This document shows, piece after piece, positions 25,350-27,347 of a stretch of 34,075 nucleotides of DNA. The position numbers and the translations under genes are program-made. Source of the stretch: Verrucomicrobiota bacterium (GTDB lineage: Bacteria; Verrucomicrobiota; Kiritimatiellia; UBA8416; SLMC01); assembly GCA_030018915.1 (NCBI GenBank), contig JASEHE010000010.1:1-34075 (forward strand), read 5' to 3'. Numbering within the stretch: position 1 is the first letter of the stretch; each line of letters opens with the position of its first letter. The notes under the pieces were generated by a model. That model was not told the origin of the DNA and did not search any database. It saw only the letters and a list, made by a program, of their open reading frames with translations.

Positions 25350-25536
25350 GCAAACGTTGTTCTATCATCGTCTGGCGCATGAGATATACGTCGCGCGATC
25401 AACAAATGACGCTCGGAATACGCGGCAAATGACTGTCCGTGGATCCGCTATCGGGCCGGATCCCCGGCAATTACAAACGTTGCCCGAGAATACGTTAGCC
25501 ATGAGGAAAATGAAACGGAGAAAGGGAAAACAGAGA

Positions 25537-26679
25537 ATGTCATACCCATCAGTTGACCAGTTACAGAAGGTTCTTACCGAGAAGGTCTTTCACTACGCCA
25601 AGGACTCGAAAAAGGCCGCTGGTCGAGCCCTCGGCACCCTCGTCGAAATCATCACGTTCTACTCGCTAAAGGCGTGGGGCCTTGAGCGGAATGTTGCCAT
25701 AGAGAAACCGCTACCAGAGTTCGGAAACGACGACATCACGCACAACGTCGAATACAGCCTCCATCCGTCCAACCCGCTCGTCACGGTTGACTTCAGCCGG
25801 GACGACCTTCCCATTACGGCGCGGAAGATTGCCAGACTCCCGGAGGTTGCCGCACTGGCGATCCATTCGGACGCGATCAAGACCAGTGCCCTCCTGAGCA
25901 AAGACTTGGTTCTCCGAAACTCATGCACGGTCTGCGATTGCGGCGAAACATTCCTCAACGCATGCCTTGACAGCCTCGGCAAGAAGACCGGGCGGTACTC
26001 CGTCGCCACCCTTCGCCGCCGTCCCTTCGCTATTTTCGAGTGCAAACGCGTCGGCGTCGAGGAAGGCATGCGGAAGGGACCGCAGACGACTGAGAAGGCG
26101 AAGCAAGGCGCCTACGTTGCCCGAACGGTGTCCGCATTGCAGAAGATCCGATTGACCGATGGCAGCATGGGCGGTCTCATTCAGAAGCGTGACGGGTCGT
26201 TTCGGCATGGCGACTACTACAAACTGATGGCAGAGATCATTGCGTCGGGTGATCCAGAACTGCTTTCACGCTTCATCTTGACCGTCGGCGTCGTGAGCAA
26301 TCACGGCAACCGGTTCACGTCGGAGAACCACAACAAGGAACTGAAGGTGCTTGCCCAGTCCTACGACTGGCCGTTGTTCTTGACCGACGCAGGCATCGCC
26401 CAATTCATTGACGAATTGCTGCTACACCCAGCGGCCGAACTTGGGGCAGCCCGGAAAGCATTTCTTGCCAGTTACACCGGCAAGAAGGGGGTAAACCAGT
26501 TTGCGAAAGTCCAAATCTCTCTTGCCGCCGATACCGCCCTTCAAACCTACTTCAAATCGAAGGCGAGTACGATTGAAGGATGGTTCAACATCATCGCCCC
26601 CGCAGGCAAAAGCCTGGGGGCTCTGAAAGACGAACCGGGCACGCTGAAAGGCAAGAACCGGCAGGAGATTCACGCATGA
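25537..26679 (+). CDS. Putative type II restriction endonuclease (PD-(D/E)XK-like)
   Basis: RBS-like GGAGAAAGGG upstream of ATG 25537; alternative in-frame ATG at 25501. RRPFAIFECKRVGVEEGMRKGPQTTEKAKQGAYVARTVSALQKIR contains an E-x-K motif. Stop overlaps the methyltransferase start (ATGA). Confidence 0.7.
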   Translation: MSYPSVDQLQKVLTEKVFHYAKDSKKAAGRALGTLVEIITFYSLKAWGLERNVAIEKPLPEFGNDDITHNVEYSLHPSNPLVTVDFSRDDLPITARKIARLPEVAALAIHSDAIKTSALLSKDLVLRNSCTVCDCGETFLNACLDSLGKKTGRYSVATLRRRPFAIFECKRVGVEEGMRKGPQTTEKAKQGAYVARTVSALQKIRLTDGSMGGLIQKRDGSFRHGDYYKLMAEIIASGDPELLSRFILTVGVVSNHGNRFTSENHNKELKVLAQSYDWPLFLTDAGIAQFIDELLLHPAAELGAARKAFLASYTGKKGVNQFAKVQISLAADTALQTYFKSKASTIEGWFNIIAPAGKSLGALKDEPGTLKGKNRQEIHA

Positions 26680-27290
26680 CAGCCGGGCGGACACTGAACA
26701 CTCTCAGTCAGGAGTGGGGAACACCGGAGAAGTACGTCAATGCGGTACGTGAGTTCTTCGGCGGCCACATCGCCCTTGATCCCTGCTCAAATGAGTATTC
26801 GATTGTGCATGCGGAAACGGAATACCGCCTTCCGAAGCATGACGGACTCCGAGAGACCTGGGATTTTCCCACGATCTACGTGAATCCGCCATACGGAATA
26901 GACAAGGAGCGTGGCACTTCGATCAAGAAGTGGTTGTGCCGCTGTGCCACCGCACACAAGGAATACAAGTCCGAAGTTCTCGCCCTTGTGCCAGTTGCCA
27001 CGAACACCGGCCACTGGAAGAACAATGTATTCGGCAAGACAACGGCAGTTTGCTTCCTGTACGACACCCGCCTCAAGTTCCTCGTCAATGGGCAGAACGG
27101 CGGCAAAGGCGCACCGATGTCCTGCACGATGGTTTACTGGGGCAAGGACTTCGACAGGTCCCTCTCCATCTTTGCCAAGTTCGGTGCGGTCATTGACCTC
27201 CGCCCGTTGAAGGGCAAGAAGTTCGGCGAATGCTCGGAAAACGGGCAGACGGACTTGATCCCGGAAGAAGAACCGGAAGAGGAAGGCTAA
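26676..27290 (+). CDS. DNA N-6-adenine methyltransferase, phage Dam-like
   Basis: QEWGTPEKYVNAVREFFGGHIALDPCSNEYSIVHAETEYRLPKHDGLRETWDFPTIYVNPPYGIDKERGTSIKKWL; catalytic NPPY motif and the 'W(G/N)TP ... LDPC' start typical of the family. Confidence 0.88.
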   Translation: MTAGRTLNTLSQEWGTPEKYVNAVREFFGGHIALDPCSNEYSIVHAETEYRLPKHDGLRETWDFPTIYVNPPYGIDKERGTSIKKWLCRCATAHKEYKSEVLALVPVATNTGHWKNNVFGKTTAVCFLYDTRLKFLVNGQNGGKGAPMSCTMVYWGKDFDRSLSIFAKFGAVIDLRPLKGKKFGECSENGQTDLIPEEEPEEEG

Positions 27291-27347
27291 CAAAGCGGTG
27301 GAACACTACGCCGCGAAGCGCGGCGAGGTTCACCGCCGCCGTTAGCG
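27285..27347 (+). other. Integron attC-like recombination site
   Basis: TAAC AAA GCGGTGGAAC ACTAC GCCGCG AAG CGCGGC GAG GTTCACCGC CGCC GTTA (27288-27344, 57 nt). Outer TAAC/GTTA, arms GCGGTGGAAC/GTTCACCGC pairing with one unpaired base, and an inner GCCGCG/CGCGGC hairpin, as in attC architecture. Confidence 0.8.

What the first reader, a model, noticed from the sequence alone, without database searches (positions are those of the whole stretch)
25494..27347. Restriction-modification unit packaged as a solo integron gene cassette inside a type II secretion operon
Seen directly: two ATGA-coupled genes (putative endonuclease, then Dam-like N6A methyltransferase) are bounded on the left by GTTAGCC at 25494 and on the right by a compact 57-nt attC-like structure whose R' core is GTTAGCG at 27341. 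The recombined unit would be 25495-27341 (1847 bp). It interrupts a conserved pseudopilin run (gspG-H-I | J-K), and gspJ starts 14 nt past the attC-like site. Established: IntI recombinases recombine attC at the G/TT of GTT, and cassettes can land at secondary sites outside integrons; R-M genes are known integron cargo. Inference: a cassette was captured at a non-integron locus and may be transcribed from the secretion operon, coupling R-M expression to secretion.
Basis: partly seen in the sequence, partly recalled or inferred. Interest (0 to 1): 0.88.

Follow-up and report, generated by a model that had tools for sequence, protein, structure and literature searches.

The report
Solo integron cassette carrying restriction-modification genes
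A two-gene DNA-cutting and DNA-marking pair, probably a phage-defence unit, sits as one complete integron gene cassette in the middle of a protein-secretion operon: a clear natural case of a process already known (a cassette landing outside any integron), not a new kind of element.

Summary
27285-27347 is a genuine attC site. A covariance model trained only on 18 attC sites from other genomes gives it 72.8 bits (E 3e-16); the next-best place in the 34 kb window scores 20.5. Near-identical copies (97%) sit in a true cassette array beside an integron integrase in a relative. In 23 of 23 consecutive cassettes of related arrays, the cassette's first 7 nt are the exact reverse complement of its own R''; the window unit obeys this (GTTAGCC/GGCTAAC), and GTTAGC occurs on the + strand only at the two boundaries. 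A Smithella copy of the endonuclease-methyltransferase pair shares its leader with the window starting exactly at the predicted crossover. All 26 relatives with both genes on the contig have gspI and gspJ at most about 260 nt apart, without an insert. The unit is therefore a 1,847-bp cassette (25495-27341) inserted alone at a non-integron (attG-type) site. The integrase genes found in this genome are broken. Restriction activity and transcription from the secretion operon are unproven; the first gene has no family or fold match. Solo cassettes recur in related genomes. Verdict: a new member of a known kind.

The parts
25122..25493 (.). left flank: gspI stop (25122-25124) and 369-nt non-coding spacer, no attC or attI-like hairpin
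   Evidence: sequence; attC model R2 with filters off gives only 9.4 bits here (E 4); same-family relatives G001 and G002 also have a 150-260 nt non-coding gspI-gspJ spacer
25494..25500 (+). left cassette boundary GTTAGCC; crossover G|TTAGCC between 25494 and 25495
   Evidence: exact reverse complement of the cassette's own R''; identity with the Smithella copy L025 starts here
25495..27341 (+). complete integron gene cassette, 1847 bp
   Evidence: boundary rule, 23/23 in related arrays; GC 56% against 64% for the rest of the window
25537..26679 (+). putative restriction endonuclease, 380 aa (in-frame starts at 25501 and 25510 give 392 or 389 aa); invariant E168-C-K170
26676..27290 (+). Dam-family DNA N6-adenine methyltransferase (PF05869), 204 aa, NPPY motif; TAA stop lies inside R''
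27285..27291 (+). attC R'' box GGCTAAC
27285..27347 (+). attC site; the folded bottom strand has 3'-side extrahelical bases C17, T21, T24 (counted from the R'' end)
   Evidence: R2 72.8 bits, E 2.9e-16
27341..27347 (+). R' box GTTAGCG: G from the cassette, TTAGCG from the target site
27359..28087 (+). gspJ, first gene after the cassette

Best explanation
25495-27341 is a complete integron gene cassette. It carries an endonuclease-methyltransferase pair, most likely a type II restriction-modification unit. An integron integrase acting in this lineage inserted it alone into a non-integron (attG-type) target, AATACG|TTAGCGGAACACG, in the non-coding spacer between gspI and gspJ. Steps: a circular cassette with R'' GGCTAAC paired to R' GTTAGCC recombined through its folded bottom strand with a G|TT in the chromosome; TTAGCC then became the left end and the target's TTAGCG completed R'. 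Shown here: attC identity, boundaries, an insert-free gspI-gspJ junction in relatives, active-type integrons across the class, broken integrase genes in this genome. Inferred: integrase-catalysed insertion (not seen), restriction activity, transcription by read-through from gsp or from an unrecognised promoter, and retention because losing the methyltransferase while nuclease persists would be costly.
For: attC model R2, built from 18 sites in other genomes without the window, scores 72.8 bits at 27285-27347 against 20.5 for the next place. Copies 96-97% identical lie in other families of the class, one in array G089:C313 with attCs 595 bp apart and an integrase at 15115-16050 facing away from them. 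The rule 'cassette start = reverse complement of own R''' holds in 23/23 array cassettes (shuffled mean 1.7, maximum 9) and in the window. GTTAGC is on the + strand only at the two boundaries. In the Smithella copy L025, identity runs from TTAGCC to the start codon and drops to background upstream. Extrahelical positions 17/21/24 are shared with array attCs. 26/26 relatives with both genes on the contig have no insert between gspI and gspJ. 75/145 relatives carry an integron integrase. GC is 56% in the cassette against 64% elsewhere, lower than any other stretch of that length in the window.
Against: R' GTTAGCG and R'' GGCTAAC deviate from the textbook GTTRRRY/RYYYAAC at one or two positions, although array sites of this class vary in the same way. 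The position-17 extrahelical base is C here, not the G of the other sub-family. The 91-92% identical pair in a Verrucomicrobia MAG (L040) has no attC and a different leader, so the pair also moves or persists without a cassette. The integrase genes found in this genome are broken. No exact empty-site sequence was found, because the nearest relatives are too diverged.
Confidence: 0.88

Rival explanations
1. Remnant of a lost integron or array: the gspI-gspJ spacer once held a larger array (a CALIN), and this is its last cassette rather than a single off-target insertion.
For: The left spacer is long (369 nt) and as GC-poor as the cassette (56%); integrase remnants exist elsewhere in the genome.
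Against: No second attC, attI or integrase remnant in the spacer; both same-family relatives have a similar 150-260 nt non-coding spacer without cassettes; single cassettes at unrelated loci recur in related genomes.
Confidence: 0.06
2. Transposon-like insertion with a 6-bp GTTAGC target duplication; the hairpin is only a terminator or end structure.
For: GTTAGC flanks both sides as a direct repeat.
Against: No transposase or terminal inverted repeats; TTAGCC travels with the pair in Smithella, so it belongs to the unit and not to the target; the hairpin matches attC sites of arrays in sequence, fold and extrahelical positions.
Confidence: 0.02
3. The 63-nt element is a dispersed REP-like palindrome that happens to lie after the methyltransferase.
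For: Copies lie at scattered places (C111, C183) in the genome, some with degenerate outer boxes.
Against: The outer boxes covary by cassette and define cassette starts 23/23 in arrays; 16 sites in one 8.9 kb array.
Confidence: 0.02

Closest known systems
Integron gene cassettes inserted at attG (non-classical genomic) sites (Loot et al. 2024 Nat Microbiol, cited in PMC12901181 and PMC11023631; the paper itself is not held)
   Same: A single cassette with its attC inserted at a G|TT outside any integron; integrase elsewhere or lost.
   Different: Natural case in an uncultivated lineage, in a type II secretion operon, with a two-gene restriction-modification-like cargo; attC of a class-specific type.
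CALIN / solitary attC elements (Cury et al. 2016; PMC8618304)
   Same: attC-bearing cassette without an adjacent integrase.
   Different: Only one attC; CALIN calls need two or more.
Restriction or methylation genes as integron cassettes (PMC8618304, PMC9892861, PMC12444791)
   Same: Defence-type cargo of cassettes is reported in reviews and surveys.
   Different: The putative endonuclease has no Pfam, NCBIfam or PDB fold match; it was not shown to be that of any reported cassette.

Membership tests
attC site / integron gene cassette | R'' and R' boxes complementary, 57-141 nt apart, GTT at the crossover | tested here: met
   GGCTAAC ... GTTAGCG, 63 nt; the last one or two letters deviate from GTTRRRY, as in array sites of this class
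attC site / integron gene cassette | L''/L' imperfect stem with extrahelical bases on the 3' side of the folded bottom strand | tested here: met
   single-base bulges at positions 17, 21, 24, shared with array attCs; base identity at 17 differs between sub-families
attC site / integron gene cassette | cassette 5' end complementary to its own R'' | tested here: met
   7/7; rule 23/23 in related arrays
attC site / integron gene cassette | same attC type in bona fide arrays next to intI | tested here: met
   G089:C313 with an integrase at 15115-16050; model of array sites finds it
attC site / integron gene cassette | recombined by an integron integrase | not testable with these tools
   needs an attC x attI or attC x attG assay
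attG (off-target) insertion | cassette lies outside any integron, no attI or attC on its left | tested here: met
attG (off-target) insertion | exact empty site in a close relative | tested here: inconclusive
   26 relatives without insert, but too diverged at the nucleotide level for the exact site
complete integron at this locus | adjacent intI and attI | tested here: not met
   the strong hit is C57 (broken gene), a scrap is on C206; none on the window contig
type II restriction-modification system | DNA methyltransferase coupled to a cognate nuclease | tested here: inconclusive
   PF05869 methyltransferase met; nuclease only a weak PADLOC match and invariant ExK; no PDB fold match

The most novel reading that the evidence does not exclude
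In this bacterial class integrases scatter single cassettes through the chromosome at attG sites as a routine, fixed mode of gene acquisition, so that operons such as type II secretion act as expression platforms. The R-M cassette, with an undescribed endonuclease family, would then be one that selects for its own retention after the integrase has decayed.
Probability: 0.25. Interest if true: 0.62.

Novelty: new member of a known kind. Interest (0 to 1): 0.46.

Why it matters
Off-target capture of cassettes was worked out mainly with laboratory integrases. A boundary-precise natural case, with the integrase decayed and a self-preserving cargo, shows how a cassette can become a fixed part of an unrelated operon. 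It also shows an integron-rich class in which solo cassettes recur and can be counted, and it flags an unnamed, very widespread endonuclease family paired with a Dam-type methyltransferase.

Tried and rejected
Rfam has no family that hits the site. Whether R''/left-box homology came only from the gene ends: L040 does end in GGCTAA without attC, but the left box and the hairpin cannot be explained that way. Transposon target duplication: rejected because TTAGCC travels with the unit. REP-like palindrome: rejected by array geometry. Covariation counting on the first 11 sites was weak against shuffles because the near-identical copies vary little; the independent model R2 and the boundary rule were used instead. 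Phage and plasmid collections gave only <60% methyltransferase relatives. Fold search of the endonuclease model (pLDDT 86) found nothing at E <= 0.001. No sigma-70-like promoter was found upstream, which says little for this organism. Metagenome contigs could not be scanned, so the DNA around the closest endonuclease relatives (93% identity, small metagenome contigs) was not seen.

Full report
Observation. The window is one whole contig (C11) of a 2.1 Mb, 209-contig metagenome-assembled genome, 90.5% complete. Between gspI (24594-25124) and gspJ (27359-28087) lie a putative endonuclease (25537-26679) and a Dam-family N6-adenine methyltransferase (26676-27290; PF05869, E 5e-13), overlapping in ATGA, followed by a 63-nt imperfect palindrome 27285-27347. 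It folds with z = -5 against dinucleotide shuffles on either strand. GTTAGC occurs on the + strand of the 34 kb only at the two proposed boundaries.

Is it an attC? Yes. A model R1 seeded with the window and ten similar sites found attC-like sites in 53 of 145 related genomes. Several lie in cassette arrays, for example G104:C1 (L144), G078 (L145-L147) and G089:C313 (L087). From 18 sites of such genomes, leaving out the window and its near-identical copies, I built model R2. It gives 27285-27347 72.8 bits, E 2.9e-16; the next-best place in the window has 20.5 bits. R2 finds 16 sites on one strand in the 8.9 kb contig G078:C84. The caveat is that the R2 sites were first found with R1; the array geometry is the independent check. 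In 23 of 23 consecutive cassettes the first seven nucleotides after the upstream attC are the exact reverse complement of the cassette's own R'' (shuffled mean 1.7 exact, maximum 9 in 2000). The window unit obeys the same rule, GTTAGCC against GGCTAAC. Folded as bottom strand, the site has single unpaired bases on the 3' side at positions 17, 21 and 24 from the R'' end, the same positions as in array sites of other genomes. A 97% identical attC lies in G089:C313, 595 bp from another attC and a few kilobases from a full integron integrase gene facing away. 75 of 145 relatives hold integron integrases over the curated cut-off.

Is the left boundary real? Yes, on two further grounds. In Smithella sp. 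D17 (L025; endonuclease 80% identical) the ungapped leader is nearly identical to the window from TTAGCC to the start codon and drops to background immediately upstream, exactly at the predicted G|TT crossover. Metagenomic relatives keep in-frame upstream starts at the same distance (MKKMK..., 392 aa), and one (P0037) begins MLAMKKMK, as GTTAGCCATGAAG would encode. Conversely, the closest genome copy, L040 (Verrucomicrobia MAG, 91-92% identical), has neither the leader nor the attC, and R2 finds no attC around any of the 17 relatives L024-L040. So the pair also lives outside cassettes, or its cassette ends have decayed there.

Is the location outside an integron? In all 26 relatives where both genes are on the contig, gspI and gspJ overlap or are at most about 260 nt apart, with no gene between. 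The two same-family genomes G001 and G002 have a non-coding spacer of 150-260 nt there, so the 369 nt left of the cassette are probably old spacer. Nothing like attI or a second attC lies in it. The joined flanks read AATACG|TTAGCGGAACACG. An exact empty site was not found because relatives are too diverged. The cassette is 56% GC against 64% for the rest of the window, lower than any other stretch of that length.

Where is the integrase? The one strong hit (C57) has lost part of its middle, is frameshifted and carries a TAG; C206 has only a C-terminal scrap. An intact gene may be in the missing 10%. The cassette is therefore probably no longer mobile by itself in this genome.

What does it do? 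The methyltransferase family is clear and has the NPPY motif. The first gene has no Pfam, NCBIfam, PHROG or PDB match and a weak PADLOC type II REase match (E 0.003). It has over 3,400 relatives, an invariant E168-C-K170 in 42 sequences down to 51% identity, and a confident model (pLDDT 86) with no PDB fold match. A PD-(D/E)XK-type restriction endonuclease is my inference, at about 0.75. Expression from the gsp operon is possible and untested; no sigma-70-like promoter was found upstream.

Generality. Of 20 scattered attC sites outside arrays in six genomes (the window included), eight have the matching 5' heptamer upstream (about 0.1 expected for each with a full search range); at six of these besides the window the left flank does not look like attC. 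Solo cassettes are thus recurrent in this class.

Novelty. Cassettes entering genomes at attG sites are published (Loot et al. 2024, known here through PMC12901181 and PMC11023631), off-target insertion is a proposed origin of CALINs (PMC8618304), restriction and methylation genes are listed cassette cargo (PMC8618304, PMC9892861), and Verrucomicrobiota are listed as integron hosts (PMC8618304). This is a new, unusually clean member of a known kind. The new parts are the locus, the lineage's attC type, and the unnamed endonuclease family.

Noticed in passing
L172, L174, L175, L178, L189, L190 (G002, G089, G051): Single cassettes with the matching 5' heptamer and no attC on their left, scattered in related genomes: off-target cassette insertion looks common in this class.
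   Followed up: partly
window 27285-27347 and L145-L147: The extrahelical base at position 17 of the bottom strand is C in the window's attC sub-family and G in that of G078: a possible lineage-specific change in what the integrase recognises.
   Followed up: partly
window 25537-26679: Putative endonuclease of an unnamed family: over 3,400 relatives in many phyla, no Pfam, NCBIfam or PDB fold match, always-conserved ExK.
   Followed up: partly
window 21778-22317: A 23S rRNA-intervening-sequence protein gene (PF05635, four-helix bundle) sits just before gspF in the same secretion operon: a second odd passenger.
   Followed up: no
window 364-582: Group II intron RNA (Rfam RF02005, E 5e-32) on the minus strand near the contig end.
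   Followed up: no
L015 (own contig C57) 2001-3480: Broken integron integrase next to a RecB/UvrD-like helicase gene; on its other side a divergent reading frame follows GTTGGCC, possibly attI and a first cassette cut by the contig end.
   Followed up: partly
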